Below are positions 24,020 through 56,634 of a stretch of DNA of 64,000 bases, in pieces. Location: the NCBI RefSeq assembly GCF_020439865.1, contig NZ_JAGRPF010000033.1, positions 29,615-93,614 of the forward strand, read 5' to 3'. This DNA is from Prosthecobacter sp. Lineage in GTDB: Bacteria; Verrucomicrobiota; Verrucomicrobiia; Verrucomicrobiales; Verrucomicrobiaceae. A program made the position numbers and the translations under genes. The notes beneath the pieces were generated by a model. It had not been told where the DNA came from, ran no database searches, and saw nothing but the letters and a program-made list of their open reading frames with translations. The stretch's first letter is position 1, and each line of letters opens with the position of its first letter.

Positions 24020-24180
24020 GCCAATCGGCTGGTTTTCAACATAAGGATCGTTTTATACTTGAGGCTTACCTAGTGTGGTCCGCATATTGGCAGGCTAGCC
24101 GCGGCACATTATCTGATCGAGATGCGATGGATGCATCTGTCAGAGGTGTGCTCGGTACCGACCTGCCAACCAGTCCACAC

Positions 24181-36100: not shown

Positions 36101-39100
36101 GCACCACCATCACTGCCACGGGCACCGGTGATCTGACCATCCACGGCGGTCCCAGCACCAACGGCAACACCTACCAGGAGTTCCGCTCCTCCGTGGTCTA
36201 TGGTTCCTCTGACCAGATCGCCAACACTGCCACTGTGACCCTGATCGGCAGCGGCCGTTTGAATCTGAACAACTTCAGCCAGACCATCGCCGCGCTCGTC
36301 TTCAACAACATCGGCGGTCACAACCCCGAGGTTACCACCGGCACCGGCACCTTGACGGTGACAGGCAGCAGCATCACCGCCAGCGGCCAGAACGCCAGCA
36401 CCAGCGCCATCTCCACCATCAACGGCAAGCTGGCCCTGAGCGCCGCCACCACCACCTTCACCATCAATCCGGTCGAATGGAACGGGGCGATCCTCAACCC
36501 GATCCTTCCCAACCTTATCATCAATGCCTCCATTGAAGGCGCCGACATTGTCAAAAACGGAAACGGCGTTTTGCGGCTCACGGCATCGAACGCCTTCACT
36601 GGCAGTTTTGACCTTCAGGCAGGTGGTCTCGCTCTCGGCAGCAACAACGCTCTCTCCACTGGTTCACTGATCATCGGCAATGGCACGTTCCTGACCTCGA
36701 CCGCTGACAACCGCATTATCGCCAACTCGTATTCTGTCACCGGTGACTTCGCCCTTCGCGATGCCTTCAACCTCACCCTTTCCGGTGACGGAACGCTGGC
36801 TGCAGGAAATCATGACATCTCGGTCGATCTTGCTGCCAAGACACTCACGCTCAGCGGGGTCCTCGGCGGGGCCACGGCCAACATCAACAAGACGGGCGAC
36901 GGCATCCTCGTGCTGGGCAGCAGCAACAACACCTACGGTGGCACCACAACCGTGACGGACGGCATTCTGCGCTATGGTGTCGCCAACGCCATTCCCACCG
37001 GTTCCGCAGTTTCTGTGCTGCAAGGCGCCCTGCTCGACATCACCCTCGGTGGTTCGGCGGTGACTGTGGGTTCGCTTTCGAGTGACAGCGCTACTCTAGG
37101 TGGCGTTGTGTATCATGGAGACACCAGCGGCACGAACACGCTCACAGCGGGTGGTGACAACACGACCACGAGCTTCGGTGGTGTCATCGCCAATGCGACG
37201 GGCTCGACGTTGAACTTTGTGAAGGACGGCACCGGTACGCTCACCTTGGGAGGTGCCAACCAGTACAATGGCAGCACCACCGTTGCGGGCGGCCGCTTGA
37301 TTGCTCAGCCTGTGGGTGGCAACAGCCCGCTTGGCACCAGCCAGAGTCTCATCATGGGTGGAGCCTCCACGGCGGGGATTCTCCAGCTTGGCAACGGCAC
37401 CGGAGCCCTGAGCCACACCTTCACGTCTCTGAGCAGCCAGGGCACCGCCACGACCAATCAGATCGTCTCCGGCAACGCCACGATGGCCACGTTGATCCTT
37501 GATCTTGCCGCCAACAGTGTGTTTGCAGGCAACATCGGTGGCTCTGGCACCAACGAGGCCAACTTGAATCTCGTGAAGAGCGGAGCAGGAGACCTCACCA
37601 TTTCCGGCACAGGCACCAGCATGTACAACGGCACCACCACGGTCAACGGTGGCAAGCTCTTCATGGACACGCCAGGCGCCTTTGCTGCCACAACCACCAG
37701 CCTGACCTTGGCGGACGGCACGGAATTCTCCCTGCGTGGAACCACAAACGCTGCCAACCAGGTCTTTGGCTTCTCGGGTTCCGGCAATGTCATCACCGTC
37801 GGCAGCAGCACTGGAGCCACCCTTGGCTTCGGCATCGATGGGGTTTTCAATTCCCAACTCAGCCTGGCCACGGGTCAGACAATGACGGTCAATGGCACAC
37901 TGACGACAGCCGTGTATGTGAACAGCGCCCCAACCGACGGGCTCGACTACATCCTCATCAATGGAGCTGACGCCAGCTCACTCCACGCTGGCAGCGGAAC
38001 CTTCGATCTCAACCCTGTCATCTTCAACGGGGGCAGCTTTAGCTATGCGCTGCGCAATGAAACCTTGGGTGGCACGGTCGACCAGTGGATCCTGACTCCC
38101 ACGGCGGTTCCTGCCGCAGCAGACACATGGTGGAAAGGTGACCTCACCGGCATTGGCACGGGTGTGTGGTCGGCGACCACCACGTCGGGCACGGGATTCC
38201 CTTCCAACTGGGACACCGACCAGTCTTCGGGAATCGATGCGCTCGTCCCGCCTGATGCCGGCTCCATCGTCCACTTCAGCGCCACGGGGGCTGCAAATTT
38301 CACCACCACACTCGGTGCCAATGTCACGATTCAGGAGCTCATCTTCCACACCGGCAACTCAGCCACCTCCATCGGCAGTTCCAATGGCATCAACACCCTG
38401 ACTCTCGGCAACACTGTGGATGCCAGCGGCCTTACCATTCAGACCGGCGCCGCTGATGTCAGCATCAGCGCGATTGTGAATCTCGCGCAGAATCAGTCAT
38501 GGAACATTGAGGACAGTGCACGTCTCCTGACCCTCTCCGGTAGCCTGACAGGCACGGCCATCGCCCTGACGGTCAACGATTCTGTGACAAACGCGGGCAG
38601 CCTTGTCTTCACCGGCAGCGCTGCGAGCCTGACTGGCACGCTGAACATGAATGCGGGCACGCTCCTGTTTGACGGGACGGGAAGCTTGAACTCGGGTCTC
38701 GATGTGGTGCTTGGAACGGTCAGCACGGCGGCGACCCTCAAGGTCGGTGATGCAGGCGCGGCCTCGGGCGCGACGATCGGTGGCCTGAGCAATGGTTCCT
38801 TTGCGGGCAGCCGCGTGATTGGTGGCAATGCATCCCTTTCCACGCTGGCCATCGGCCCGAGTTCGGGCACAGCCACATTCTCAGGCGATTTGGGCGGTGT
38901 GGGCACCAATGAAAACCAGTTCAACTTGGAAAAGACTGGCGCTGGCACCCAGATCATCAGTGGCACCACCATCACCTATGCCGGTAACACCACAGTCCGG
39001 GAGGGAGTTCTCCAACTCGGCTCCACCGCTGTCTTTGCTCCCACGGGTTCACTCTCCGTCATTGCCAACGCCGGAGTGACTGCGGCCTTCGACTTCAATG

Positions 39101-42100
39101 GAAAGAGCTTCACCACGATCGGCACCCTGACGCTCGGCGGCGGTGCCAGCGGCCAGGCGCAGGTGCTCGACACCAATGGCACCAAAGGCACCCTGACGCT
39201 CGGCGGTGACATCACTTACGATGCTAGCAACAACCCTGGCAACGCCACCATCTCTGCCAATCTCAATACCACGGGCGCCAACCGCGTGGTCACCGTTGGA
39301 GATTCCACCAATTCCACCAACGAACTCACCATTTCCGGCACCATCACTTCGACTTCCAACAACAGCCTCACCTTGGCGGGTGCCGGCAATGGCACGATCA
39401 GCGGAAACATCAGCCTCAATCCCGCTGGCGGCGCCACGTCCAGCCGTGACTTTGTGTTTAACAGCACCGGCACTTGGGATGTGAACGCCAAGATCGAAGC
39501 CGGGGATGACCTGCTGCTCAACACGGGCACCATCAATGCCAATGTAGGAGAATCCTTGGACGCCACAGATGACATTGTCATCGACGGTACTGGAACCCAG
39601 GGAAGCATGGTGGTGAACATCTACAGCACCTCCCAGGTGCACACCGGGGACGACATCTTCATCCGCAATGGCGGCCAGATTAACATTTATGGCGCTGGTG
39701 GTATCGGAACCGGCACAGACCAGCTCCTGATCGGTGATTCTGCATCGAACAGCGCAGCGGCTGCAGGTTTGTTGAATTTCGCCGCCAACGTCAACATCAG
39801 CACCACCAGCGGCTTCCAGTTGGGAGCCACCGGAGGCCAGCTCGGCAACATCACCGGCACCGGCACCTTCACCAGCGCCGGAACCAAGGATTTGCGGAAC
39901 GGCAGCATCGGTGACGGTGTCACGCTCGCCGGCAACGGGGCCATTACCAAGCAAACCACCGGCACCGTCACCTTCTCTGGTGCACGTGCGGGCGCGTCCA
40001 CTGGTGCCACCAACATCTTTGAAGGCACGCTTATCCTTGACTACACCACGAACAACAACAGCAAGATCGGCGGTGTGCTCACCTTGGGGCAGTTGAACAA
40101 CGTCTCCAACGGAACTCTCCAACTCAACGGCAACGATGCTGGTGCCACATCGCAAAGTGTGACCAGCACCACCATCTCCACTGGCAACACCACGGTGGCC
40201 ATCAACAACGGCACCGGGCAGACCGCCACGCTGAACCTCGGCGCCATCACCCGCACGGTGGGAGGTGTGGTTTCCTTTGAGTACCTCAGCGCGAATGCCG
40301 GTGCCACTTCCACCAGCCCTGCCGGTACGCTGGGTTACGCCACGCTTTCCATCGCCGGCGGGTCTGACCGCTTTGCCGCCATCGACGGCTCTGGCAACAT
40401 CGTTCAGGCCACGCTCACCACGCAAAATGACGTGACGCTCTGGGCGACGGGACAGAACATCATCAATGACGCGGCTTTCGCCGGCGTGGTGGACTGCGCC
40501 AACATCGCCAGCCTCACATTCAACGGCATCAGCGCCAACAACACGCTCAGCCTGACATCCACCGGAGACCTTCTCATCAGCAGCGGCGGTATCATGGTGG
40601 ATCCGTCGGTCGGGGCGTTCAGCAGCACCATCAGCGGTGGTCGTCTCCTCGGCGCCACGAATTCGGGAATCGCGGGTGAAATCATCATCCAGCAGAACAA
40701 CACGGTCGGACTCCTCACCATCGCATCTAAGATCATCAAGAGTGCCGGAATCACCAAGTCCGGCTTTGGTACGGTCCTCTTGAGCGGTGCCAACTCTTTC
40801 CTCAACACCGGCAGCCAGCTGGTCATCAACGAAGGAACGGTGCGGATCAGCGGTGGCAATGCGTTGGCGGACAACATGTCAGTCTACATGCGCCAGGGCA
40901 CCACGTTCGATGTCAACAACAGCACCGAAGTGGTCGGACACCTGGTTACCGAGAGCAATGGCACCATTGCCCTGGGCACGAGCGGTAAGCTCACCTTCAA
41001 CCAGACGGGCAACATCAGCTACCGCGGGCTTTTCACCGGCGGAGCAACCAGCCAGCTCACTCTCAACGGACCGCTCTTCAATTTCAACATCACCGGCAGC
41101 ACCACCTCGGCGTTCACTGGCGCGGTTGTCGTCAATACAGGCCTCCTCCAGCTGAGCGGCTCGGCAGGCAGACTGAGCGGCGTGCTGTCCTTCACGATTA
41201 ACAAGGGAGGCACCATGCTGATCGACAACAACGACGACAGCGCTCCCAACGACCGCATTTCCGACAGTGCCGCATTCACTCTGCACTCTGCCGACGGTAC
41301 ACCCTCGGGTGAAGTCGCGCGCCCGCGGGGATTGTGGATTCGTTCTGACAACAGCAACGGCGAAGACGAAACCATTGGCGCCCTTACTTTCGCCAGCGGA
41401 GCCAGCTATGCCACGCTGGACGCCAACACAACCAATGCGGCCGCTGTGACACGTCTCATTTCCAGCGGCTGGACACGCAACGCCGGTGCCACCATCAACG
41501 TGCGCGGCCGCAACCTCGGTGCGACGGCCAATCAGCGCACTGGCTTCAAGATCGCGGATGCCAATGATTCGGCGTTCATGGCGGCCAATCTCATCGGTGG
41601 CTCCGGTGGCGCTGGAACCGACACCCGTTCGATTGTGCCTTGGGCCATGGGAGAGAACATGACCGTTGGGGGGGCCACGGACACCAACATGGGCAACACC
41701 CTGCTCACTTACGTCGACAATGTGGGTTTCGTGCCGCTAAGTTTCACCAACGAGTATAGCACCTTTGCTGCGAAAGATTCTAATGATGACAACATTCGCG
41801 AGAGCCTGACCGCCGATCTTACAGGCCTGGTTGGCCAGACCATCAACTCTCTGGTCATCCACAACAACAGCACCTCCGCATCCACCATCAATGTGACTGG
41901 CGCCGGAGCTGGCCATGCACTCATCAACTCCAGCGGCACGTTCCTCTTCACCCAGAACACCGCCGCCGCTGCCAGCACTGTCCACAGTGTCGTTCTCGGC
42001 GGCTTTGTCGACGGTATCCAGGTTGGCGCCACCAACGAATATGTGTTCTTCGTGGTCAATCCCTCCGCTGCGACCAACACCGCCACGCTCACTGCCACGG

Positions 42101-43952: not shown

Positions 43953-44999
43953 TTATCGCCCCACTTCCATCAGTGTTGGCAGCTTGTGCAGAGGGGTGAA
44001 CTCCACGGTGCCGCCCGGGCCTGCTTTGGGCTGCTGGCTGCTTGATTTCAGGTAACGAAACAGCTCGCTGTCGGTGGTGAAGATCATGGTGGTGTCATCG
44101 GTGATGACCTTTTTGTAAGCTTCCATGGTCTGCTTGAACTCGAAGAGCTCTGCGGCTTCGGGAGTCTGGTTGTAGGCCTTGGCGTAGATCTCGGTGGCCT
44201 TGGCGTCGGCACCGCCCTCGAGCTCCTGCACTTTGCGGTAGGCTTCGGATTCGATGGTGGCGAGGTCGCGCTCGCGTTCGCCGTTGATCTTGGCGGCTTC
44301 GCCGGCGCCCTCGGAGCGGTAGCGCTCGGCGATCTGCTGGCGCTCGGTGATCATGCGCTGGTAGATGGACTGGCTGACGGAGGCGTCGTAGTCGATGCGC
44401 TTGAGGCGGACGTCGAGGATCTTGATGCCTAGTTCCTTCACCTTCGGCGCCGCATTGGCGAAGATCTCCGCCTCGAGCTCGCTGCGCCCTTGGTTGATGG
44501 CGGGCAGGACACCGATGCGGGCCTCGGCGGTGGAGACTGCGGCGCCTTCGACCGGGGCAGGGCCGTCGCGGACGACTTTGCGGTCCTTGGTGGTGCGCAC
44601 GGCCTCGATGAAGTCATGACGTGCGATGACGATGCGTGTCTCGCTGCCGATGATACCGTTGAGGCGGGAGATGGCGCGGTTCTCGTCGGTGAGCTGGCGG
44701 AAGAAGACGAGGGGATCGACGATCTCCCAGCGGGCGAAGACATCGACCATGACGAAGACTTTGTTCTTCGTGGTCATGGGGGTGGACTCGCCGTCCCATT
44801 CGAGGACGCGCTTTTCGATGCGGTTGACGGTCTGGATGAACGGGGTCTTCCAGTGCAGGCCGGCGTCTTTCACCGGCTCGCCCACGGGCATGCCGAACTG
44901 GGTGATGATGGCCTGCTCCGTCTCGCTGACGGTGTAGAAGCCGGAGCTGAGGAGGATCGAGAGCACCAGCAGGGCGATGAGTGCAACGGTGGATTTCAT
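43953..44999 (-). CDS. hflC: Protease modulator HflC (SPFH/band 7)
   Basis: Inner-membrane partner of HflK; together they form a cage around FtsH protease in E. coli and regulate its substrate access. 348 residues: one N-terminal membrane anchor (STVALIALLVLSILLSSGFY), then the SPFH domain (VSETEQAIITQFGMPVGEPV, GLHWKTPFIQTVNRIEKRVL, FVMVDVFARWEIVDPLVFF), a long coiled coil with the flotillin-type Ala/Glu pattern (AERYRSEGAGEAAKINGERE) and a C-terminal EAAELFEFKQTMEAYKKVI. An insertion near residue 145 (RKVVRDGPAPVEGAAVSTAE) is longer than in E. coli. Starts by ATGA overlap with the hflK stop. FtsH is not in the window. Confidence 0.93.
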   Translation of the reverse strand: MKSTVALIALLVLSILLSSGFYTVSETEQAIITQFGMPVGEPVKDAGLHWKTPFIQTVNRIEKRVLEWDGESTPMTTKNKVFVMVDVFARWEIVDPLVFFRQLTDENRAISRLNGIIGSETRIVIARHDFIEAVRTTKDRKVVRDGPAPVEGAAVSTAEARIGVLPAINQGRSELEAEIFANAAPKVKELGIKILDVRLKRIDYDASVSQSIYQRMITERQQIAERYRSEGAGEAAKINGERERDLATIESEAYRKVQELEGGADAKATEIYAKAYNQTPEAAELFEFKQTMEAYKKVITDDTTMIFTTDSELFRYLKSSSQQPKAGPGGTVEFTPLHKLPTLMEVGR

Positions 45000-46003
45000 C
45001 GGGTGGCGGGGGCTTGGGATTGCTGCGGGGCGTGCTGACGCAGGTTCATGAGGGGAAGGAAGGACGAGGCCTTGTCATCGAGGATGATTTTGCCAGGCAC
45101 GGTGGGCAGGACCTCGCTCATGGTCTCGAGGTACATGCGCTTCTTGGTGACCTCGGGCGCCTTTTTGTACTCGGTGAGGAGGGCGTTGAAGCGGTTGGCG
45201 TCGCCCTCGGCTTCGTTGATGCGCTTGGCGGCGTAGCCTTCGGCGGCGCTGATTTTTTGCACCGCCTCGCCGCGGGCGCGGGGAACGACGCGGTTGTACT
45301 CGCCGCTGGCCTGGTTTATGGCGGACTCACGCTCCTGCTGGGCGCTGTTAACCTCGTTGAAGCTGGCTTTGACCAGGGCGGGCGGATTGACGTTGCCGAG
45401 CTGGATGAGGTCGATGCGCAGCCCCATCTTCAAATCCTCGACCAAGGTGCGCAGTCGATCGAGTGCGTGCTTTTCCATCTCCTGACGGCCGATGGTGAGG
45501 ACCTCGTCAACCGTGCGGTCACCCACAACCTCCCGCATGACGGCCTCGGAGAGGTCGCGCAGGGTGGCCAGGGGCTCGCGGAAGTTGAAGGTGTAGGCGA
45601 CAGGGTCTTCGACGTGGTATTGCACCTCCCACTCCACGAGAACGGCGTTGAGGTCGCCGGTGACCATGTTTTTCTCCTGCTGCTGTTCCTCGTAGTCGGT
45701 GTACTGGTAGAAATTCGTGGCGCCATGCGTGGCGGTGCCGAATTCGAGCTTCTGCTGGCGCTGCACCTCGACGACGGTGGCGCTGTCCACGCCCCAAGGG
45801 AGCTTGAAGTGCAGTCCGGGCGGTGCGGTTTTCAGATAGCCGCCAAAGCGCTGCACCACGGCCACGGAATTCGCGGGCACCTGATAGATGCCGGAGAACA
45901 GGCCGATGAGCAGAAAAACGCCGATGAAACCGAAGAGGATGAGCCGGGCGTTGATCCGAATTTGAATCGGGCCCGGCAGGGGAGGCGGACGAAGGGTAGC
46001 CAT
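44996..46003 (-). CDS. hflK: Protease modulator HflK (SPFH/band 7)
   Basis: 335 residues, first gene of the hflK-hflC pair, overlapping hflC by 4 bases. A proline-rich cytoplasmic head (TLRPPPLPGP) precedes the membrane anchor (LILFGFIGVFLLIGLFSGIY). The SPFH domain starts at VPANSVAVVQRFGGYLKTAP and includes GLHFKLPWGVDSATVVEVQR and TGDLNAVLVEWEVQYHVEDP, the last a strong HflK signature. The coiled-coil part (VPRARGEAVQKISAAEGYAA, KRINEAEGDANRFNALLTEY) and ending MYLETMSEVLP are also typical. Shorter glycine-rich head than in proteobacterial HflK. Confidence 0.93.
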   Translation of the reverse strand: MATLRPPPLPGPIQIRINARLILFGFIGVFLLIGLFSGIYQVPANSVAVVQRFGGYLKTAPPGLHFKLPWGVDSATVVEVQRQQKLEFGTATHGATNFYQYTDYEEQQQEKNMVTGDLNAVLVEWEVQYHVEDPVAYTFNFREPLATLRDLSEAVMREVVGDRTVDEVLTIGRQEMEKHALDRLRTLVEDLKMGLRIDLIQLGNVNPPALVKASFNEVNSAQQERESAINQASGEYNRVVPRARGEAVQKISAAEGYAAKRINEAEGDANRFNALLTEYKKAPEVTKKRMYLETMSEVLPTVPGKIILDDKASSFLPLMNLRQHAPQQSQAPATR

Positions 46004-47025: not shown

Positions 47026-47224
47026 GCTTGAATGGGAGTCCAGATTGAGGAGCGCCACGATAGGGGGACGCAGCTCCGCGGCAATGACGTTTGTATTAGC
47101 GGTCACGTTGCACCTCGTGCGAACGGCCGGACGATGCGAAGATGCGGGTCGCAACCCTGCCGGGAGCCAGTTGACCAAGATAGCGCTGCCGTGTCTGCTT
47201 TTGGATTCCGTTGCCCCCTCGACA

Positions 47225-50200
47225 TCACTCCCGCTCGCTGGCTTCAGCTTTGGCAATCTCGTCCCACGACGGCGCGCGAAACAGCCGTGCTCCGTCCCAT
47301 CCGTTGCCGAACTTGTAGGGAAACAAGAGGATGCCGTGATCGTCGGACGTGAACCGGGGTGTTGCGTAATAGAAGCCCGTCGGAGGTTCGAGCCGGGCGA
47401 CTTCCTTCCAGCTTCGGGTGCTCCACAGTTTCACAGGCTCGCTCCCGATGGTGTTGCTCAGCAACCGCGTGCCATCGAAGGAGTATTGCAGCTTCGTGAT
47501 CACGAGGTTGTGCCCACGCAGAGTGGTCACGAGGTGACCGGTGTCCACGTCATGGATCATGATCGCAGGCCTGTCCCTCTGGGCGACCGCCAGTTGCTTG
47601 CCGTCCGGAGACAACGCCATGCCCTGGATCCCCGCCACGCTTGGCACCGCGATGGCGGCCTCCTCGGTTTCGTTCGCGATGTCGCAGACGGTTACCGAAG
47701 TAAACCGCGACACCGCCATTCGCCTGCCGTCCTGCGAGAAACACGGGACGTGGTCCTGGACTGATTTGCGGATGGCCAGCGCGCAGGACGACAGCTTCCG
47801 ACGGCCGGTGACATCCCAGCGAATGACAGTTGCCTCCCCTGTCTTCTCGCCCGGCACCAACAGGACGAGGAGATGGGAAAGCTCGAGATGTTCACTTATC
47901 ACCCACTCGACGGTGCCGACGTCCATGGGGAAGCTCTCGACCTGATTGGAAACCAGGTTCCACACTTTGATTTCAACCGGCGCTTTCGACACTGCCACAA
48001 TCTGGTCGGGCGCCACCCAGAATGCCTTGACGTTGTTCGTGCCGAGCTCCGAGGGCACCGCAGGAACAGCACCGCCGGCGAGCGTGACAACGCCACCCAC
48101 GGTGGAAACAATCTTCTCGCCGCTTGGTGCGGCCTGCGGAGTCCCCTGCATGAGCGGACGCGCAACGACAAGGGCCGAGGCATCACGCTCCGCGAAGTTT
48201 GTCGCGGACCAGACTTCGATCCGCTTGTCCTTGCCGCTGCTGACGACTTTTGCGCCGTCGGGGGAAAAATCCACGGACCAGACCTCGTCCGTGTGACCTA
48301 GGTGCGTGCCGCGCTCTGTCCACGTCTCAACGTCCCAGATCTTCACCGTCTGATCGGCGCTGGCGGACGCCAGGGTCTTGCCGTCGGGTGAAAACGCCAA
48401 CCCCGCGACGAAGCCCGTGTGGCCGGACAGAACCCGCTCGGTTGTGCATTTCTCGACGTCCAGAATCTTGACTTGAGGATCGATGAACACGCATCCGCAG
48501 GCAACCCGCCGGCCGTCGGGTGAGAAAGCCAACGAAGAGATGCCCTGCCCACGGACGGCTGCCAGTTTGACATCTCCCTTCAACGTCCAAGTCTCGACGT
48601 TCATGAACAGAACCTGGCCTCCGAATCCAGCCACAGCCAGGGTCCTGCCATCCGGTGAGAACTGAACTGCTCCAAAGCTGGGGAGCAGCTTTGGTTCGGC
48701 GTCCAGCTTGATCGTCACGGGCTTTCTTTCCCCTGAGGCGATGTCCCAGACGAATGCCGTGTTCTTCTTCAAGATGTAGGCTGCCAGAGTGCCCCCATCC
48801 GGTGAAATAGCGATGGCTGTGGCGCGCTCCTCTCCGATGGCCACCTTCCGTGGCGGCGACTTTGAAGACAGATCCCAAATCCGGACGAAAAACCCGTCAT
48901 TGTCCATTTCCACGGCCCCAATCCATCGCCTATCCTGCGAGGCGCAAAGGAACCCGGAGTTGCTGCCCAGTGTGAAAGCGGATGGGTCACTCTGCTCCTG
49001 CAGCGTCTCGACGCGGCGGCTGTCGAGCATGATGCGCCTCACCGCCCCCCCGTGTTCGTAGCTCACGATGGATTTTCCACCTTCCACAAAGATCGCCTGG
49101 GTCACCCGGACCTTCTGCTCGCCGAGTTCAAACAGCGCCCCCGTCTTGCACCGCTCCGTAAGCCAGCGCCATTCCCAGCCACGAAGATCTTCCGCGCCAT
49201 CCTTGGGCAGTTGCGACTCAAGCAGTTGGCGGGCTTCGCGGAGATTGTTCGAACTCAGCGCCCGACGGCAGAGCAGCATGTCCGCCGCGTAGGCACGCCT
49301 TCTCTCATCGGCCCTCTCATTCTGCACCGTGATACGCTGCTGAGCTTCACGCTTCTCAGCCTCGTTGGCGCGCGCGGCTTCGGCTTGTGCCAGCTGCTGC
49401 TGCCTTTCAGCAGCGGCGCGAGCCCGCGTCGCCTGCACCGCCTGCCAGGTGCTGACCACGATTCCAGTCACCAGTGTGAGCGATACCACTGTGGCGGCTG
49501 AATAGGCAATCTTGTTCCGACGCCACGACTTTTGAAGGCGATACGCCGCGCTCGGCGGGCGGGCCGTCACGGGTTCGTTGGCCAGGTGACGTGTGATGTC
49601 CGCAGCAAGGCCGTTGGCCGTTTCGTAGCGGCGTCTGCGATCCTTCTCGAGGCACTTCATCACGATCCAGTCGAGATCACCGCGGCACTGATGCAGCAGA
49701 TGCGACTTGTCCGTTGATCGCCGCTTGGCTGTGGTGGTCAGCTCCTGATCATTGAGCGTTGCCAGCCGGTTGCTTGGGCGCGGTGGATCTTGTTCGCGGA
49801 TCGTTTTGCGCATCGCATCGATCCCGGACGCCATCAACTCCCGCGCATCGAACGGCGTGCGCCCCGCGAGCAGTTCGTAGAGCAGCACGCCGAGGCTGTA
49901 GATGTCGCTGCGCGTGTCCATGTCGAGTCCGCTCATCTCCGCCTGCTCCGGGCTCATGTAGGCGGGCGTTCCCACCAGTTGATGGAGCTGTGTGTAGATC
50001 GTCGCGTCGGTGAGGCTGCCCTCCGTCGCCTTCGCGATGCCGAAGTCGATCACCTTCGGCACCGGCACGCCGTCATACAGCGTGACGAGGATGTTCGACG
50101 GCTTGATGTCGCGATGAATGATGCCCTTCTGATGCGCGTGCTGCACTGCATGGCAGACTTTGGCGAACAGTTCCAGCCGCTCCCCGGTCGTGAGATTGTT

Positions 50201-50737
50201 TTGGTCGCAGTAATCCGTGATCGGGATGCCGCGCACGAGTTCCATCACGAAAAACGGGCGCCCAAACTGCGTCGTGCCCGCATCCAGCACCTTTGCGATG
50301 TTCGGGTGATCCATCACCGCCAGCGCCTGCCGTTCCTGCTCGAAGCGTGCGATGACCTCCTTCGTGTCCATGCCCAACTTGATGATCTTTAGCGCCACGC
50401 GGCGCTTCACCGGTTTCTCCTGATCCGCCACCCACACCGCGCCAAAACCGCCTTCGCCGATCTGCTCCCGCAGCTTGTAGGGACCGAGGATGTCGCCTTC
50501 CTGCTCGGAGGCCCGCCCCGCGAGCAACTTCCGTTCGGCCTCGGACATGGGAAGCGTTGCCTCGAGATCGACTGCCAAAGGGCTGGCGAGAAAACTGCCC
50601 GCGCCTTCATGCGAACGCAGCAATTTGTCGATGCGCGCGCGCAACTCCGCATCGCCTGCGCAGATCTCGTCGAGGTAGGCACCGCGCTGCTCCGGCGGCA
50701 GCCCGATGGCATTAGTGAAGATGTCTTCGTGCGTCAT
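47225..50737 (-). CDS. Transmembrane Ser/Thr protein kinase with C-terminal WD40 repeats
   Basis: 1,170 residues; start 50737 chosen by alignment with its paralogue (MTHEDIFTNA versus MTDESIFTHA). N-terminal ~80 residues are a conserved leader ending RSHEGAGSFL. Kinase domain about 85-390: P-loop GEGGFG at 95-100, Lys117 in VALKIIK, HRD 208-210 in IIHRDIKPSN, DFG 231-233, SPEQAEM; all catalytic residues intact. One membrane helix near residues 415-435 (AATVVSLTLVTGIVVSTW) then a coiled coil. The rest is WD40 propeller, best seen in LSGHTGFVAGLAFSPDGKTL and HTDEVWSVDFSPDGAKVV, predicted extracytoplasmic. Third gene of the ECF-kinase-kinase array; its upstream region carries the shared 33-nt element. 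Confidence 0.93.
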   Translation of the reverse strand: MTHEDIFTNAIGLPPEQRGAYLDEICAGDAELRARIDKLLRSHEGAGSFLASPLAVDLEATLPMSEAERKLLAGRASEQEGDILGPYKLREQIGEGGFGAVWVADQEKPVKRRVALKIIKLGMDTKEVIARFEQERQALAVMDHPNIAKVLDAGTTQFGRPFFVMELVRGIPITDYCDQNNLTTGERLELFAKVCHAVQHAHQKGIIHRDIKPSNILVTLYDGVPVPKVIDFGIAKATEGSLTDATIYTQLHQLVGTPAYMSPEQAEMSGLDMDTRSDIYSLGVLLYELLAGRTPFDARELMASGIDAMRKTIREQDPPRPSNRLATLNDQELTTTAKRRSTDKSHLLHQCRGDLDWIVMKCLEKDRRRRYETANGLAADITRHLANEPVTARPPSAAYRLQKSWRRNKIAYSAATVVSLTLVTGIVVSTWQAVQATRARAAAERQQQLAQAEAARANEAEKREAQQRITVQNERADERRRAYAADMLLCRRALSSNNLREARQLLESQLPKDGAEDLRGWEWRWLTERCKTGALFELGEQKVRVTQAIFVEGGKSIVSYEHGGAVRRIMLDSRRVETLQEQSDPSAFTLGSNSGFLCASQDRRWIGAVEMDNDGFFVRIWDLSSKSPPRKVAIGEERATAIAISPDGGTLAAYILKKNTAFVWDIASGERKPVTIKLDAEPKLLPSFGAVQFSPDGRTLAVAGFGGQVLFMNVETWTLKGDVKLAAVRGQGISSLAFSPDGRRVACGCVFIDPQVKILDVEKCTTERVLSGHTGFVAGLAFSPDGKTLASASADQTVKIWDVETWTERGTHLGHTDEVWSVDFSPDGAKVVSSGKDKRIEVWSATNFAERDASALVVARPLMQGTPQAAPSGEKIVSTVGGVVTLAGGAVPAVPSELGTNNVKAFWVAPDQIVAVSKAPVEIKVWNLVSNQVESFPMDVGTVEWVISEHLELSHLLVLLVPGEKTGEATVIRWDVTGRRKLSSCALAIRKSVQDHVPCFSQDGRRMAVSRFTSVTVCDIANETEEAAIAVPSVAGIQGMALSPDGKQLAVAQRDRPAIMIHDVDTGHLVTTLRGHNLVITKLQYSFDGTRLLSNTIGSEPVKLWSTRSWKEVARLEPPTGFYYATPRFTSDDHGILLFPYKFGNGWDGARLFRAPSWDEIAKAEASERE

Positions 50738-50770
50738 GGCAGATTGTCGCTTCAAGTGGTTCTATCCTAA

Positions 50771-50803
50771 AAGGCGAGATTCCGGAGCCCCATGACTCAT
50801 CGA
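50771..50803 (-). promoter_or_regulatory. 33-nt element upstream of the WD40 kinase, identical to one at 56044
   Basis: Reads TCGATGAGTCATGGGGCTCC followed by GGAATCTCGCCTT on the minus strand, 34 bases before the kinase start. It contains the palindrome ATGAGTCAT. A GGAAT sequence is followed at 16 bases by GAACC here and in the copy before the LRR kinase, a spacing that would fit a -35/-10 pair; promoter identity is inference. Confidence 0.5.
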
Positions 50804-50867
50804 ATTTCTTTTTTATCACAGATGGGGAATTCGAGGGCGACAGGAGAGATGCTCCAACTGCTTCAGG

Positions 50868-53800
50868 TCAATCTCGCACTGCCTGTTTCTTCGCGTCGTA
50901 TTCCTTCCAGAACTCCTCGGCGGTCTGGGCGGTGATCCATTTGGCGTCGGGGTCATCCTTGTAGCTGATGCGCTCGAGGTTGGGAAAGGTGCGGAGGAAC
51001 TCGATGTCCTTTGCGTTCGGTGGCAGTGTGAGCACCTTGAGCGTCTTGCACTCCTTGATTGGCGAAAGGTCGGTGATGTTTTCGCACTGGCCGAGCTTGA
51101 ATGAGGTCAAAGGCATGCCGCGGAGCGCCGACAGTTCGGAAACCTTCGTATACCCCATTAACAAGTTGTCGATCGACATGCCGCGGAGCGGTTCGATGCT
51201 TTCGACTCCAGTGCCGTTGATGCGCAGAAGTTTGAGCGGCATACCTCTGAGCGGACTCAGGTCTGTGACGCGGGTGTGGGCCAGAGTCAGTTGCTCGAGG
51301 GGCATCCCATGAAGCGGACTGAGGTCGGCGACTTTTGTTTCATCGAGGTACACTGCGGTGAGGGCCATCCCGCGCAGTGGCTTCAGATCCACGACGCCGG
51401 ATTTGGCGAGGCGCAGTTTGCTGATCGGAGCTCCCTTTAACATCGTGAGGTCCGAGATTTTGGCGCCGATAAGATTCAACTCCCATGTGCCGTCGGGCAG
51501 TTGCTTCACGCTCTGGATCGCGACCCCCGCTGCACGCAGCGGGGGTAGCCATTCTTGCGCGTCGTATTCCTTCCAAAACTCTGCGGTGGTTTGGGCGGGA
51601 TTGGCACCGTTAGAGTTGAAGCTGAGGCGCTCGAGCTTGGGAAAGCTGCGGAGGAATTCGATGTCCATCGCCTTCGGTGGGAGCGTGAGTTTGGTGAGTG
51701 TTTTGGAATCCGCGAGTGGAGACAGGTCAACGAGTTTATTGCAGGAATGAAGGAGCAGAGTGCTTAGAGCCATCCCTCGCAGGGCCGCGAGGTCGGTCAC
51801 TTTGGTGTTGCGCAAAGACAATCGCTCGATCGGCATCCCCTTGATGGGACGCAAGTCGGTGACGTTTGTGTTGGCGATATTGAGTTCCTTGAGCGCCATG
51901 CCGTGCAGGGATTCCAAATCGGCGACGGCGGTATCACCCAATTTCAGAACACTGATCGGCGCTCCTTTCAGGATATTGAGATCGCTGAACTTCGAGTTGC
52001 TGAGGTCCACCTCCCAGGTGCCGTCGGGCAGTTGCCGGGCGCTCTTCACGCAGCCGGTTGCACGCAGCGGGCGTAGCCAGGCTTGCGCGTCGTATTCCTT
52101 CCAGAAGTAGGCGGCCTTTTGATCAGGAAGGCCACTGACGCCTTTGTTAGTGAAGGAAAGCTCGGCCAGGGCGGGCAGGGCGCGGAGCGCGCCCACGTCG
52201 CTGGCCCCGGCGGGAAGCACGAGTTGCTTCAGCGTGGGGCACTTGAGCAGCGGACTGAGATCGGTGACGGCCGTATCGTTGAGTTGAACCCATTCCAGCG
52301 GCATTCCAGCGAGCACGGAAATGTCGGTGACCTTGGTCCTGCCCAGGCGGGCGATTCGCAGTTTGAGACCGCGCAGGCTGGCGAGGTCGGCCAGTTTGGT
52401 GTCGAAAGCCCGGAAATCCTCAAGATGGGCGCAGGCGGCCAGCGGTGAAAAGTCGGTCACCTGTGTTTGACCGATAAACAAGACCCGCAGGCTGCCACTC
52501 AGTGCCGGTGCCCGCAGCGGGCTGAGGTCGGTCACTTTCGTATTCATGAGGTTCAACTCCGCAAGGGCGAGTTCCTCCAGTGGGTGGAGGTCGGTGACGC
52601 TGGTCCCTTGGAGCCGCAATGCCCCAATGTTGGTCGCGCCTTTGAAAATGGAGCAGTCGCTGAAGTCTTTCGAAGTGATCGTAACTGCCCACATTCCCGC
52701 AGGCTTTCCGACCTGATTGCCGGTGGCCTTTTTGTTCTTTCCTTCGCCACTTGGTTTATGGGTCTGGCGGGATGCATCAGGTGCCTCATCGAGAATTCTC
52801 GACGCAGTGTATTTCACTCCCGCGTCGTTCAAAGCCCGCATCCACCACAAGCCGTCCCACTCCTCCCAGAACTCGTCAGTTGTGGTAACGGGAAGCCATG
52901 GGTCCTTCGCCATCATCTGAAACGCGAGACGTTCCAAGTTTGGCAGTTTGCGGAGCAGTTCGATGTTCCGGGCGCTCGTCGGCACGGTGAGGATTTTCAA
53001 GGTGGGAATCTCAGCGAGAGCGGCGACATCTGTAATCTGGTTGCACCCACTTAGTAGGAGCTTCTCAAGCGGCATCCCCGCAAGCGGGGAGAGGTCGCTG
53101 ACCTTCGTCGCATGGAGGATCAAACTCTTCAGCGGCATTCCTTTCAGCGGGCTGAGGTCGGCAACTTGGCTATCTCCAAGGTGGAGGTAATCCAGTGGCA
53201 GGCCGGCGATTGGCGACAGGTCCGTGACCGGGCATCCCAGAAGGAAGAGGCTGCTGATCGGCACGCCCTTGAGCATCGAAAGGTCCGAGAACGGCTGGTT
53301 TTGGATCGAGAGCGAGTAAGTCCCGGCGGAAAGTTTGGAAAAGCCAAACTTGAATCCGCTTTTCCGCAGTTTCGTCACCAAGCTCTTCTGGATGTCCCAA
53401 TCCTCCCAGAAATCGTCTTTCGACAGTGTGGTATTGATGATCCAGGAACCGGACCGGTATTCGGTCTGAATGTTTTTCAGCGTCGGATGCGTGCGGAGGG
53501 ACTCGATGGCAGCCAGATCTTCCTCCGGCAGACTGCGAAAACTCTGCGGCAGGATCAGCAGGTCGAGTGACTTCAACCCGGCGAGGACGGAATAGCCGCG
53601 TGCCTCGTCGCAATTGAAGAGCGCGAGTTGTTTCACGGGCGAGCCCTCAAGGAAGGAAAGATCGCGCAGGGGTGAGTTTTGAATGAAGCACTTTTCCAGG
53701 GGCGCTCCGGCCAGCGGTGAATAATCCGTGGCGGGTATCGAACTGGCGTCGAGCATCGTGAGCGGCATTCCGGCGAGAGGCGAGAGGTCGGAAACGCGGG

Positions 53801-56021
53801 TGTTCCGCAGGTCGAGTTTCGTCAGCTTCATTCCGCGCAGCGCGGTGAGGTCGATGACTTTCGTGTCCGCGAGGTCGAGCGTCTCCAGCGACAGTCCGCT
53901 CAACGCGGAGAGGTCCGTGATTTTCGTGCCGGTCAGGTAAAGAATCTTGAGATCGGTGAGGCTGGTGATCACGGCCAGGGCGTCATCGTCCAGCGAGGAG
54001 ATATCTCGCAGAATGAGGGTGCGCAGCGGGGCTCCCCTCAGGGGGTCGAGACTCTTGACCTTGCTGCACCCATCCAAACTAAGCCAGCCAACCGGCATAC
54101 CGCGCAGGGGCTCGAGATCGGAGACCCCGGATCGGGAGAGGTCCAGCGTTAGCCGGCCAACGTCAGCCATCGTGAGGCGCTCCTTGAGCGGCTTCTCGGG
54201 CGAAATGGGGAGGTCCTTGAGCTTCTCAAGCCAGAATTCGACGATGAATTTCTTCTCTTCGCCGAGCAGCCTGGCGACCGGCATGAGGTGTGAGGCCGGG
54301 CGCTGCTGCTGCTGCATGGCGAGCTGGAGCCTGGCGAGGCTTTCGCGTGTGAGATTGCCCTGCTCGCCGGGCGCGGCCGCGAGCAGTTCATCGCAGAGCT
54401 TGGCAGAGGCCTCGGCACGCGCGAGGTCCGGCTGCACGCGCAGGGCTTCGCGGTAAACAACGGCGGCTTCGGCGAGCTTGAACTGGCACTGGAGCAGGTC
54501 GGCCTTGGCTACAAGATACTCAGCGACGTTAGGCCGCAGCCTGATGGCGTAGTCGAGCTTGTCGATGGCGTCGTTGAACTGCTCTTTCGCCGCGAGAGAA
54601 CGCGCCTGCACAGCAAACGCCGGGGCCGTCGCGCGCAGTTCATCGAGCGCCATCGTGGCTCGCTCCTCGGCGGCCTTTGCCTGCGTCGCCGCATCTTGTG
54701 CGCGGTGTGCCTGCCACAGGCTGGCTGCGATGCCGACAACGAGCGAGGCTGCGATGGCCGCACCGGCGGCGAAGGCCACCTTGTTGCGCCGGATGAGCTT
54801 GCTGAGCAGGTAGCCCGCTGTGGGCGGACGCGCGATGACGACTTCATTGGCCAGATGCCGCTGGAGATCGAGCGCGAGACCATTGGCCGTGTCGTAACGG
54901 CGTGCGCGATCCTTTTCCAGGCACTTCATCACGATCCAGTCGATGTCGCCGCTCAACGTGCCGGGCAGCCGCGTGGGATCGGTGTGGCGGCGCTTCGCCA
55001 TGGTGGTCAGCTCGTTGCCATCGAGCGTCTTCAGCCGCGCCGAGGGCCGCACCGGATCGACCTCGCGGATGATGCGGCGGATCTCGCCGATGCCCGCCTT
55101 GGCCATGGTGGTCATGTCGATGGGCGTGCGACCGGTGAGCAGCTCGTAGAGCAGCACGCCGAGGCTGTAGATGTCGCTGCGCGTGTCCACATCGACGGAG
55201 GTCATCTCCGCCTGCTCCGGGCTCATGTAGAGCGGCGTGCCGATCATCTGCTCGAACTGCGTGAAGAGCGTGCCGTCGGAGAGCTTGCCCTGCGTGGCCT
55301 TCGCGACGCCAAAGTCGATGACCTTGGGCACCGCCTTGCCGTCATTGATGGTGACCAGGATGTTCGAGGGCTTGATGTCGCGGTGAATGATGCCCTTCTG
55401 GTGCGCGTGCTGCACGGCCTGGCAGACCAGGATGAACAGCTCCACGCGCTCATCGGTGGAGAGGTTCTTCTCGTCGCAGTAATCGGTGATCTTCATCCCG
55501 CGCACCAGCTCCATGACGAAGAACGGCCGGCCCTGCTCGGTGGCGCCGGCATCGAAGACGCGGGCGATGTTGGGGTGGTCCATCATCGCCAGCGCCTGGC
55601 GTTCCTGCTCGAAGCGCGCCACGACTTCCTTCGTGTCCATGCCCAGCTTGATGATCTTGAGCGCCACACGGCGGCGCACCGGATGCTCCTGATCGGCCAT
55701 CCACACCGTGCCGAAGCCGCCCTCGCCGATCGCCTGCAGCAGCTTGTAAGGCCCGATGCGGTCGCCGGACTTCTCCGATGAGGGCAGCCCGCGGGTGGAG
55801 GGCATCGTGCCGGGCGCGGCCTTGACCGTCACATCGAGATCGGCGGCGATGTCTTGAATGGCTGCGCCTGCGAGAAAACTGCCCGCGCCCTCGTGTGAGC
55901 GCAGCAGCTCGTCGATGCGCACGCGCTGTTCCGCATCGCCTGCGCAGGCCAAGTCGAGGTAGGCACCGCGCTGCTCCGGCGGCAGATCGATGGCGTGGGT
56001 GAAGATGGATTCGTCGGTCAT
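50868..56021 (-). CDS. Transmembrane Ser/Thr protein kinase with leucine-rich-repeat superrepeats
   Basis: 1,717 residues. Leader and kinase parts are paralogous to the neighbouring kinase: RSHEGAGSFL at 41-50, P-loop GEGGFG 99-104, Lys122, HRD 213-215, DFG 236-238, all intact. Membrane helix near 420-445 (AFAAGAAIAASLVVGIAASL), then a TPR-like helical region (FNDAIDKLDYAIRLRPNVAE). From about residue 640 to the end are bacterial LRRs of the form TKVTDLSPLxGMPLxxLxL, arranged in blocks. Each block closes with a non-LRR spacer containing FW(E/K)E(Y/W)D; five of these spacers occur (genomic about 53400, 52865, 52100, 51560 and 50890) and the last is cut short by the stop. Blocks with LPDGTWE and LKGAPIS follow most spacers. 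The 58 bases to the ECF gene indicate cotranscription or a dedicated promoter (33-nt element). Confidence 0.93.
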   Translation of the reverse strand: MTDESIFTHAIDLPPEQRGAYLDLACAGDAEQRVRIDELLRSHEGAGSFLAGAAIQDIAADLDVTVKAAPGTMPSTRGLPSSEKSGDRIGPYKLLQAIGEGGFGTVWMADQEHPVRRRVALKIIKLGMDTKEVVARFEQERQALAMMDHPNIARVFDAGATEQGRPFFVMELVRGMKITDYCDEKNLSTDERVELFILVCQAVQHAHQKGIIHRDIKPSNILVTINDGKAVPKVIDFGVAKATQGKLSDGTLFTQFEQMIGTPLYMSPEQAEMTSVDVDTRSDIYSLGVLLYELLTGRTPIDMTTMAKAGIGEIRRIIREVDPVRPSARLKTLDGNELTTMAKRRHTDPTRLPGTLSGDIDWIVMKCLEKDRARRYDTANGLALDLQRHLANEVVIARPPTAGYLLSKLIRRNKVAFAAGAAIAASLVVGIAASLWQAHRAQDAATQAKAAEERATMALDELRATAPAFAVQARSLAAKEQFNDAIDKLDYAIRLRPNVAEYLVAKADLLQCQFKLAEAAVVYREALRVQPDLARAEASAKLCDELLAAAPGEQGNLTRESLARLQLAMQQQQRPASHLMPVARLLGEEKKFIVEFWLEKLKDLPISPEKPLKERLTMADVGRLTLDLSRSGVSDLEPLRGMPVGWLSLDGCSKVKSLDPLRGAPLRTLILRDISSLDDDALAVITSLTDLKILYLTGTKITDLSALSGLSLETLDLADTKVIDLTALRGMKLTKLDLRNTRVSDLSPLAGMPLTMLDASSIPATDYSPLAGAPLEKCFIQNSPLRDLSFLEGSPVKQLALFNCDEARGYSVLAGLKSLDLLILPQSFRSLPEEDLAAIESLRTHPTLKNIQTEYRSGSWIINTTLSKDDFWEDWDIQKSLVTKLRKSGFKFGFSKLSAGTYSLSIQNQPFSDLSMLKGVPISSLFLLGCPVTDLSPIAGLPLDYLHLGDSQVADLSPLKGMPLKSLILHATKVSDLSPLAGMPLEKLLLSGCNQITDVAALAEIPTLKILTVPTSARNIELLRKLPNLERLAFQMMAKDPWLPVTTTDEFWEEWDGLWWMRALNDAGVKYTASRILDEAPDASRQTHKPSGEGKNKKATGNQVGKPAGMWAVTITSKDFSDCSIFKGATNIGALRLQGTSVTDLHPLEELALAELNLMNTKVTDLSPLRAPALSGSLRVLFIGQTQVTDFSPLAACAHLEDFRAFDTKLADLASLRGLKLRIARLGRTKVTDISVLAGMPLEWVQLNDTAVTDLSPLLKCPTLKQLVLPAGASDVGALRALPALAELSFTNKGVSGLPDQKAAYFWKEYDAQAWLRPLRATGCVKSARQLPDGTWEVDLSNSKFSDLNILKGAPISVLKLGDTAVADLESLHGMALKELNIANTNVTDLRPIKGMPIERLSLRNTKVTDLAALRGMALSTLLLHSCNKLVDLSPLADSKTLTKLTLPPKAMDIEFLRSFPKLERLSFNSNGANPAQTTAEFWKEYDAQEWLPPLRAAGVAIQSVKQLPDGTWELNLIGAKISDLTMLKGAPISKLRLAKSGVVDLKPLRGMALTAVYLDETKVADLSPLHGMPLEQLTLAHTRVTDLSPLRGMPLKLLRINGTGVESIEPLRGMSIDNLLMGYTKVSELSALRGMPLTSFKLGQCENITDLSPIKECKTLKVLTLPPNAKDIEFLRTFPNLERISYKDDPDAKWITAQTAEEFWKEYDAKKQAVRD

Positions 56022-56079: not shown

Positions 56080-56634
56080 TCATTTTTCTTTTCGGACCCT
56101 CGCATGCAGCCAGGCGCGGGCGTAGGCCCAGTCGCGGTCGGCGGTGGCCTTCGAAATGCCGAGCACGTCCGCGGCCTCCTGGCTCTCCAGCCCCACGAAG
56201 TAGCGGAGCTGGACGAGCTGCGCTTTGCGCTCGTCCTGGGCGGCGAGTTCCTGCAAGGCCTCGTCGAGAGCGAGAAGTTCGTCCGACTTGTCCGGCGGTG
56301 CGGCGGGCACGTGGATGCTGTCGAGCTCGGTACGCTGCCAGCCGCCGCCATGACGCTCCGCCTTCTTCCGGCGCGCACGATCAATGAGGATGCGGCGCAT
56401 CGCCTCGGCCGCGGCGATGTAGAAGTGGCCGCGATTCTCCCAACGCGCATCCTGCTCCGTGCGCGCGAGGCGCATGTAGGCCTCATGCACGAGGGCGGTG
56501 GCATTGATCGTCTGCCCCGGCTGCTCGCCGGCCATCTTCTGCGCGGCGAGCTTGCGCAGCTCCTCATACATGGACGGCAGCATCTCCTCCGCCCGGCGCT
56601 TCGGGGTGGATTCCGGGGAGGCGGGATCACTCAT
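56080..56634 (-). CDS. ECF-type RNA polymerase sigma factor (TIGR02999/Sigma70_ECF-like)
   Basis: 184 residues from 56634 ([10 protein letters not shown]); in-frame ATGs at 56664 and 56712 are possible. Region 2: [35 protein letters not shown], and [20 protein letters not shown]. Region 4: [37 protein letters not shown] (helix-turn-helix). The form [12 protein letters not shown] and [22 protein letters not shown] identifies the group common in Planctomycetota and Verrucomicrobiota next to Ser/Thr kinases. At the place of the acidic DxED motif of region 2.2 it has NATA, with Thr42 and Thr46 at hand. No anti-sigma gene adjoins; two kinase genes follow on the same strand. Activation by phosphorylation is therefore plausible. 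Confidence 0.92.

What the first reader, a model, noticed from the sequence alone, without database searches (positions are those of the whole stretch)
56080..56634. ECF sigma factor without the acidic region-2.2 motif, next to two Ser/Thr kinases
In ordinary ECF sigma factors a DxED-type acidic motif in region 2.2 binds the beta' subunit. Here the aligned residues are NATA (Asn44-Ala47, just before LVHEAYMRL), uncharged and with Thr42 and Thr46 nearby. In the described EcfP/PknT pair of Vibrio parahaemolyticus, phosphorylation of a threonine supplies that missing charge. The gene is first in a same-strand array with two membrane kinases and no anti-sigma factor, which fits sigma activation by phosphorylation. 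What is seen: motif and arrangement. What is inferred: phosphorylation.
Basis: partly seen in the sequence, partly recalled or inferred. Interest (0 to 1): 0.8.

Follow-up and report, generated by a model that had tools for sequence, protein, structure and literature searches.

The report
Sigma switch with kinase docking module
A bacterial gene-switch protein here lacks the charged patch that its relatives use to grip RNA polymerase and is encoded beside two predicted membrane kinases that would likely supply that charge by phosphorylating one threonine; these kinases start with a small unnamed domain that, in the genomes searched, turns up almost only where such switches occur, and it is predicted to hold the switch for the kinase.

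Summary
The gene lies on the minus strand (56634-56080), reads NATA where ordinary ECF sigma factors read DxED, and leads a same-strand row with two predicted transmembrane Ser/Thr kinases; no anti-sigma gene was recognised. Thr46 is motif position 3, the EcfP phosphosite by the published STTA motif, and is Thr in 260 of 260 sequences read. So this is a new member of the published phospho-activated (ECF43-type) kind.

What appears new lies in the kinases. Both begin with a three-helix module of about 55 residues (NTD) that no Pfam family covers. In 286 genomes of the class, NTD and this sigma family co-occur (64 both, 1 sigma only, 6 NTD only). The only PDB sequence matching the NTD profile at E<=1 is PknS, a kinase shown to phosphorylate an ECF43 sigma. 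The NTD sits on several kinase-domain lineages, and at one syntenic locus of the same genus the sigma (86%) and NTD (73%) are kept while kinase domain (39%) and sensor differ. Best reading: the NTD is a transferable sigma-docking module. It is not universal. Phosphorylation and docking are untested here.

The parts
56080..56634 (-). ECF43-type sigma factor, 184 aa, start ATG at 56634
   Evidence: TIGR02999 196.7 bits and PF07638 183.7 bits; only match over the cut-off in the assembly
56494..56505 (-). NATA (residues 44-47) in place of the acidic DxED motif of region 2.2
   Evidence: alignment with six ordinary ECF sigma factors of the same genome
56497..56499 (-). Thr46 codon, predicted phosphosite
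   Evidence: Thr in 260 of 260 sequences read; position of the EcfP phosphothreonine by the published motif STTA
50868..56021 (-). kinase A, 1717 aa, predicted transmembrane Ser/Thr kinase with leucine-rich repeats
   Evidence: Pkinase 1.6e-45 and LRR_4; one predicted TM at 415-433 and catalytic motifs
55851..56018 (-). NTD of kinase A: three-helix N-terminal module without a Pfam family
   Evidence: profile A2 E=7.3e-21 (this copy is itself a row of A2); AF2 model; no Pfam match
54888..55748 (-). protein kinase domain of kinase A (residues 92-378)
   Evidence: catalytic motifs
54723..54779 (-). predicted transmembrane helix of kinase A (residues 415-433)
   Evidence: hydropathy 2.25 over 19 residues
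47225..50737 (-). kinase B, 1170 aa, predicted transmembrane Ser/Thr kinase with WD40 propeller, start ATG at 50737
   Evidence: Pkinase 1.1e-44 and WD40
50564..50734 (-). NTD of kinase B
   Evidence: profile A2 E=1.5e-22 (itself a row of A2); 74% identical to the NTD of kinase A
49619..50479 (-). protein kinase domain of kinase B
49454..49510 (-). predicted transmembrane helix of kinase B (residues 410-428)
   Evidence: hydropathy 1.98

Best explanation
This is an ECF43-type sigma factor that lacks the acidic region-2.2 motif and is predicted to be inactive until one of two neighbouring, predicted membrane kinases phosphorylates Thr46, and the kinases likely capture it through a three-helix (as modelled) N-terminal docking module (NTD) that they share with the known ECF43 kinase PknS. 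Predicted steps: an outside signal is sensed by the leucine-rich-repeat part of kinase A or the WD40 propeller of kinase B, beyond the membrane (inferred); the cytoplasmic kinase domain becomes active (inferred); the NTD binds the sigma factor and presents region 2.2 (inferred); phospho-Thr46 makes up for the lost acidic residues of DxED so that the sigma factor can bind the beta' subunit (inferred from EcfP and EcfK); target genes are transcribed (targets unknown). Two kinases with one intact sigma factor would make an OR gate. Shown here: the sequence features, the arrangement, the conservation of Thr46, the co-occurrence of NTD and sigma factor, and one syntenic locus where the NTD is kept while the kinase domain behind it differs.
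For: Sigma side: TIGR02999/PF07638; DxED replaced by NATA; Thr46 in 260 of 260 sequences read; no sigma factor with Asp/Glu there among 16 pattern places in 286 genomes. Kinase side: the best PDB match of kinase A is 9EED, which is PknS, and the match starts ahead of the kinase domain. The NTD profile alone matches one of 177,635 PDB sequences at E<=1, PknS residues 11-55, E=5.9e-4. NTD occurs in 70 of 286 class genomes, the sigma family over cut-off in 65, both in 64, Fisher p=1.4e-55; by genus 42 both, 1 sigma only, 3 NTD only of 137. In named genomes, with a profile made from the window and 14 class loci, 70 of 73 sigma-adjacent kinases carry the NTD against 3 of 10 other kinases in the same loci. 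In the own genome 3 NTDs among 49 kinase matches over cut-off, none in the 30 other kinases read. NTD occurs on several kinase-domain lineages (9 label changes on a 158-kinase tree; 200 shuffles mean 35, minimum 30). Syntenic locus in the same genus: sigma 86%, NTD 73%, kinase domain 39% identity, long DNA homology ending at 55801, residue 73 of kinase A. In 73 pairs NTD distance follows sigma distance (r=0.334, p=0.0005) and not kinase-domain distance (r=0.007, p=0.46).
Against: No phosphorylation, binding or transcription data exist for this locus. EcfK with T51A still works when made from a multicopy vector, because linker site T106 also serves (PMC13147305), so Thr46 need not be the only switch. 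The NTD is not universal: of seven plasmid-borne sigma loci it is clear in 3, below threshold but visible by eye in 2 (Pseudoalteromonas, E about 0.3; second kinase of Eleftheria, E 0.3), only a marginal stretch far from the kinase domain in 1 Persicobacter record (E 0.038) and absent in the other (0.59); the first kinase of Eleftheria has none. Three of 73 adjacent kinases in named genomes missed the profile, two of which look like divergent copies by eye. Six class genomes have NTD without a sigma hit over cut-off and one (G203) the reverse; of two genomes with a sigma hit just under the cut-off, one has the NTD (G125) and one has not (G263). Of 150 listed NTD hits, 42 lie near no listed sigma gene (both lists truncated), and only 14 of 31 NTD loci read have one within 1.5 kb. 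The own genome has one NTD kinase with no sigma gene of this family in the 15 kb read. Within the main kinase clade (59 pairs) the three distances correlate about equally (0.37-0.50), so the separation of NTD from kinase domain rests on the 14 pairs outside it. Some tree nodes behind the 9 changes are weakly supported. The syntenic difference is one case and its direction is unknown; two DNA matches of 37 and 45 nt remain inside its kinase domain. No solved fold resembles the NTD model.
Confidence: 0.66

Rival explanations
1. The phospho-switch is right, but the NTD is only an inherited part of the kinases (dimerisation, stability or autoregulation) and does not touch the sigma factor.
For: 93 of 113 NTD kinases form one kinase-domain clade (support 0.957), and in that clade NTD, kinase and sigma distances correlate alike. 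No binding data exist.
Against: The NTD sits on several other kinase-domain lineages, also beside this sigma family; it is kept beside the sigma factor where kinase domain and sensor differ; in most mixed genera it is present or absent together with the sigma factor; the 30 other kinases read in the own genome lack it.
Confidence: 0.2
2. The NTD also works as an anti-sigma domain: the unphosphorylated sigma factor is held at the membrane on the kinase, and phosphorylation releases it.
For: A small helical domain in a membrane protein encoded next to an ECF gene is the usual layout of anti-sigma factors (established knowledge, recalled); NTD and sigma factor occur together.
Against: No structural or Pfam similarity to an anti-sigma family was seen; a sigma factor without DxED is expected to be inactive without being held.
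Confidence: 0.1
3. Thr46 is conserved for structure; the sigma factor binds RNA polymerase unphosphorylated through other contacts such as Glu51 and the acidic linker, and the kinases act elsewhere.
For: E51 and linker residues E103 and D105 are retained; EcfK T51A is functional when made from a multicopy vector (PMC13147305); Thr42 is nearly invariant too (258 of 260) although it is not the known phosphosite.
Against: EcfP is reported intrinsically inactive without phosphorylation (review PMC8999054, passages); no acidic residue is left in NATA; sigma and NTD kinase occur together.
Confidence: 0.15
4. Phosphorylation at another residue, Thr42, Thr102 or Ser106, rather than Thr46 is the main switch.
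For: EcfK needs either T51 or linker T106 (PMC13147305); T102 lies in the linker here, and Thr42 is nearly invariant.
Against: The EcfP/EcfK phosphosite is Thr46 by the published motifs; linker residues E103 and D105 are already acidic.
Confidence: 0.12

Closest known systems
EcfP/PknT of Vibrio parahaemolyticus (ECF43; Iyer et al. 2020, original paper not seen; known here from passages of reviews PMC8999054 and PMC8103513)
   Same: ECF sigma factor without DAED (STTA there, NATA here), Thr at motif position 3, adjacent Ser/Thr kinase
   Different: Two kinases here, with leucine-rich and WD40 outer parts; signal and regulon unknown; phosphorylation untested
EcfK/PknS of Xanthomonas citri (ECF43; PMC13147305, seen: abstract, structure section, discussion and passages)
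   Same: Kinase A aligns with PknS from residue 6 through the kinase domain, and the NTD profile matches PknS alone in the PDB; transmembrane layout the same
   Different: EcfK has QATE with a retained acid and needs T51 or T106; here no acid is left in the motif. The authors note the 83-residue segment of PknS as conserved among Xanthomonadaceae homologs and possibly functional, without a role; here it is found in other phyla and goes with the sigma family
Ordinary ECF sigma factors with DxED and an anti-sigma factor
   Same: sigma2/sigma4 layout, H50-E51 at the QE pair
   Different: No DxED and no recognised anti-sigma gene
Other kinase-linked ECF groups (ECF59, 61, 62, 217, 283; listed in PMC8999054, passages)
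   Same: Kinase gene nearby
   Different: PMC8999054 describes groups other than ECF43 as keeping DAED or a similar acidic motif; PMC8103513 instead gives a serine as the phosphosite of ECF59. Neither fits the Thr of NATA

Membership tests
ECF43-type phospho-activated sigma factors | Sequence membership in the TIGR02999/PF07638 sigma family | tested here: met
   196.7 bits against cut-off 126.15, and 183.7 against 21.1
ECF43-type phospho-activated sigma factors | Uncharged residues in place of DAED, with Thr at motif position 3 | tested here: met
   NATA; alignment with six ordinary ECFs of the genome; Thr46 in 260 of 260 sequences
ECF43-type phospho-activated sigma factors | Hanks-type transmembrane kinase encoded next to it, no anti-sigma factor | tested here: met
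   six neighbours scanned; transmembrane helices predicted by hydropathy only
ECF43-type phospho-activated sigma factors | Assignment to group ECF43 by the published ECF classification models | not testable with these tools
   No such models among the libraries; the classification paper is not held
ECF43-type phospho-activated sigma factors | Phosphorylation of the Thr by the cognate kinase and RNA polymerase binding only then | not testable with these tools
   Needs biochemistry
PknS-type ECF43 partner kinases | N-terminal helical segment before the kinase domain, related to that of PknS | tested here: met
   Profile match to 9EED residues 11-55, E=5.9e-4; alignment of kinase A from residue 6; three helices predicted
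PknS-type ECF43 partner kinases | Kinase domain with catalytic motifs, one TM helix, C-terminal outer domain | tested here: met
   repeats by Pfam; outside location inferred
Anti-sigma domains (for the NTD) | Sequence or fold similarity to a known anti-sigma domain | tested here: not met
   No Pfam match for the window NTDs; no anti-sigma family among the 25 of 37 families shown for 71 members; no PDB fold match at E<=0.001

The most novel reading that the evidence does not exclude
The NTD is a transferable sigma-docking domain: a plug of about 55 residues that wires any Ser/Thr kinase and any sensor to an ECF43-type sigma factor, so that bacteria swap kinase and sensor domains behind a constant plug and keep the output. 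It would then decide which of the dozens of kinases in a cell reach the sigma factor, and it would also mark kinases elsewhere in the genome, such as the one on contig C196, as further inputs to the same switch.
Probability: 0.5. Interest if true: 0.75.

Novelty: new member of a known kind. Interest (0 to 1): 0.55.

Why it matters
Sigma activation by Ser/Thr kinases is a recently recognised way of controlling transcription; the tested cases named in the papers seen here are proteobacterial (EcfP, EcfK and one from Hyphomonas). This locus carries it, with two sensors, into a genome (Verrucomicrobia, inferred) with about fifty kinases. The practical gain is the NTD: how one kinase among many finds its sigma factor becomes a direct test on a domain of about 55 residues, and a simple profile could predict kinase-sigma wiring from genomes.

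Tried and rejected
Natural phosphomimetics: if Thr46 only had to be negative, Asp/Glu variants might occur. A DNA pattern for [DE]-A-[LF]-V-H-E-A in 286 class genomes gave 16 places; in 15 the motif was readable in an open frame and none looked like a sigma factor (read by eye), and one (L206) showed no such frame. This covers only variants with the rest of the motif intact.

NTD as a known domain: Pfam at E<=10 for the two window copies, Pfam for all 71 members (37 families at E<=1, 25 shown, none matched by more than 3 members; best Crescentin 0.0028 and EAD8 0.0034, one member each), and Foldseek against the PDB (58 matches at E<=10, none at E<=0.001) gave nothing credible. A paper on effector-associated domains that mentions ECF genes (PMC8195603, passages) described nothing like it in those passages.

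Homologue search with the NTD of kinase B found only the window's own two kinases and one distant kinase; profiles and genome searches were needed.

Sigma model: AlphaFold2 gave mean pLDDT 71 and pTM 0.39, too weak to interpret beyond Thr46 lying at the start of helix 45-59.

Mapping EcfK linker site T106 onto this sigma factor: the EcfK sequence was not at hand; only an ungapped count was possible, so it is not used as evidence.

Own-genome ECF comparison: one search read the minus-strand loci on the wrong strand, so only the six plus-strand ones entered.

First kinase tree kept almost only NTD kinases because the coverage filter removed the controls; it was redone with a looser filter.

Test in a second phylum with whole genomes was not possible: 'of' takes only G handles. 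Named loci (many from Planctomycetota) and plasmid records were used instead.

Limits of the class counts: per genome at most 11 sigma, 21 NTD and 8 kinase candidates were scored, so numbers per genome are lower bounds and an absence could be a miss; in the own genome scoring all 101 NTD candidates gave the same 3.

Full report
What is there. The gene is on the minus strand at 56634-56080 and encodes 184 residues. It belongs to TIGR02999 / PF07638 well above the cut-offs. It reads Asn44-Ala45-Thr46-Ala47 where ordinary ECF sigma factors have DxED. Against six of them from the same genome, position 44 is D or E in five (one gap), position 46 is E in three (W, A, R in the others) and position 47 is D in all six. 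The assembly has one TIGR02999 match over the cut-off, plus two fragments on another contig. Downstream on the same strand, after 58 and 130 nt, come kinase A (1717 aa, leucine-rich repeats) and kinase B (1170 aa, WD40 propeller), each with a predicted transmembrane helix behind the kinase domain and intact catalytic motifs. The six neighbours scanned include no recognised anti-sigma gene.

The phosphosite. Reviews describe EcfP of V. parahaemolyticus as intrinsically inactive because DAED is replaced by STTA, with the second Thr phosphorylated by PknT (PMC8999054, passages; PMC8103513, passages). That Thr is motif position 3, that is Thr46 here. The EcfK/PknS paper gives the ECF43 consensus QTTA with the Thr in 88% of members (PMC13147305, passages). 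Here Thr46 is Thr in 260 of 260 sequences: 31 of 31 from the class loci, 84 of 84 from named genomes (one fragment dropped; part of these were found through a pattern that includes TALVH), 17 of 17 from the genus loci, which include the window's own gene, 8 of 8 from plasmids and 120 of 120 from the protein search (three kinase rows dropped). Redundancy was not removed, and the protein set is the listed best of 8000 candidates. No sigma factor with Asp or Glu there was found by pattern. Thr42 is Thr in 258 of the 260, but is not the published site. Linker residues E103 and D105 are acidic, as in the majority of relatives, so a linker switch like EcfK T106 looks less needed here (inference).

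The unexpected part: an N-terminal module of the kinases. The best PDB match of kinase A is 9EED, and its alignment starts at residue 6, ahead of the kinase domain. 9EED is PknS 1-364. Its authors note an 83-residue N-terminal segment conserved among Xanthomonadaceae homologs that 'may play a functional role', not visible in the crystal and predicted helical. Both window kinases share such a module (74% identical to each other). A profile of 71 copies (A2) has no Pfam counterpart, models as three helices with pLDDT about 95 over the first 40 residues, matches no solved fold, and finds exactly one of 177,635 PDB sequences at E<=1: PknS, residues 11-55, E=5.9e-4.

Its distribution follows the sigma factor. 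In 286 genomes of the class, 65 have the sigma family over cut-off and 70 have the NTD; 64 have both, 1 sigma only, 6 NTD only, 215 neither (Fisher p=1.4e-55; among the 256 kinase-bearing genomes, p=4e-52). Two genomes lie just under the sigma cut-off: G125 has the NTD, G263 has not. These p-values ignore kinship; counted by genus it is 42 both, 1 sigma only, 3 NTD only of 137. Of 11 genera that are mixed for sigma or NTD, 7 are concordant genome by genome, and 5 discordant genomes lie in the other 4. Of the 150 listed sigma hits (list truncated), 109 have a listed NTD on the same contig: 80 with the NTD 18-571 nt downstream on the same strand, 15 with it 3.2-5.5 kb upstream on the same strand, 14 otherwise. 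Of the 150 listed NTD hits (list truncated), 103 lie within 8 kb of a listed sigma gene on the same strand, 5 on the other strand, 42 near none listed. In named genomes (80 loci), a profile made from the window and 14 class loci finds the NTD in 70 of 73 sigma-adjacent kinases and in 3 of 10 others; 6 truncated rows were dropped; 71 of 80 loci have an adjacent kinase. In the own genome the NTD occurs 3 times among 49 kinase matches over cut-off: kinases A and B, and one kinase on contig C196. None of the 30 other kinases read has it; the remaining ones were covered only by the profile search. A kinase domain follows the NTD in the same frame in 29 of 31 loci read, and 14 of these 31 have the sigma gene within 1.5 kb.

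It is not simply kinase ancestry. On a tree of 158 kinase domains (113 with NTD, 39 without, 6 doubtful), 93 NTD kinases form one clade, but the others lie on several other lineages: 9 label changes, against a mean of 35 and a minimum of 30 in 200 shuffles; some of the nodes concerned are weakly supported. The clearest case is in the same genus. Genome G292 carries the sigma gene (86% identity) in the same chromosomal place. DNA homology runs through the divergent dehydrogenase gene, the sigma gene and the NTD of kinase A, stops at window position 55801 (residue 73 of kinase A) and resumes in the epimerase gene beyond kinase B. In between are only two matches of 37 and 45 nt in the kinase domain and the match of kinase B's own NTD to the NTD there. 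So the kinase domain and sensor of A and all of B stand against one 1591-residue reading frame that encodes a kinase. NTD identity is 73% over 70 residues, kinase-domain identity 39% over 261. Which state is older is unknown. Over 73 adjacent pairs, NTD distance follows sigma distance (r=0.334, Mantel p=0.0005) and is unrelated to kinase-domain distance (r=0.007, p=0.46); inside the main kinase clade (59 pairs) the three correlate about equally, so the effect comes from the 14 pairs outside it.

Exceptions. Among seven plasmid-borne relatives, the NTD is clear in Gemmatirosa (two records) and Paludisphaera, below threshold but visible by eye in Pseudoalteromonas and in the second kinase of Eleftheria, a marginal stretch far ahead of the kinase domain in one Persicobacter record (E 0.038), and absent in the other Persicobacter record and in the first Eleftheria kinase. 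Class genome G203 has the sigma factor without the NTD. So the NTD is the common solution, not the only one.

Explanation. The sigma factor likely waits inactive for want of charge; kinase A or B, on its signal, would phosphorylate Thr46; the NTD likely holds the sigma factor for the kinase. Phosphorylation rests on homology with EcfP and EcfK; docking rests on co-occurrence, modularity and the syntenic case. Both need experiments.

What is known and what is new. The phospho-activation is published; this locus is a new member. I found no account of the NTD as a cross-phylum module tied to this sigma family in searches for EcfP/PknT (7 papers), ECF43 with kinase, sigma factor and N-terminal (2,041 papers, 15 listed), ECF43 alone (6 papers), the family names (3 papers) and kinases with docking and ECF (99 papers, 12 listed); I saw these listings and passages of four papers. 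The original EcfP paper (Iyer et al. 2020) did not appear in them and was not looked up by id, and the ECF classification paper is not held, so they may say more.

Organism.

Noticed in passing
G000 contig C196:18939-19070 (L187, L232): A third NTD kinase (1141-residue reading frame) without a sigma gene of this family in the 15 kb read around it; it may feed the same sigma factor from elsewhere.
   Followed up: partly
G000 contig C158 about 16990-22760 (L233): Two fragments of another sigma gene of this family (profile parts 88-172 and 135-185) on either side of a 1378-residue minus-strand reading frame; no intact copy and no NTD found in the 19 kb read.
   Followed up: partly
L016-L045 (own genome): About half of the 30 other kinases read share a short motif before the kinase domain, roughly P-P-[TS]-x-E-E-L-x-x-L-L-P-x-Y-E-I, which may mark another partner class.
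   Followed up: no
window 24073-43896 (+): A 6607-codon open reading frame on the plus strand; not identified.
   Followed up: no
window 44996-46003 and 43953-44999 (-): Two adjacent Band_7 (SPFH) genes.
   Followed up: no
G292:C17 (L231) versus window 47037-55801: Whole kinase and sensor region differs between syntenic loci of one genus, flanks kept at 81-85% DNA identity.
   Followed up: yes
genus of the window (48 genomes): Only 17 of 48 genomes have any match to the sigma protein at E<=0.001, so the module is patchily distributed.
   Followed up: partly
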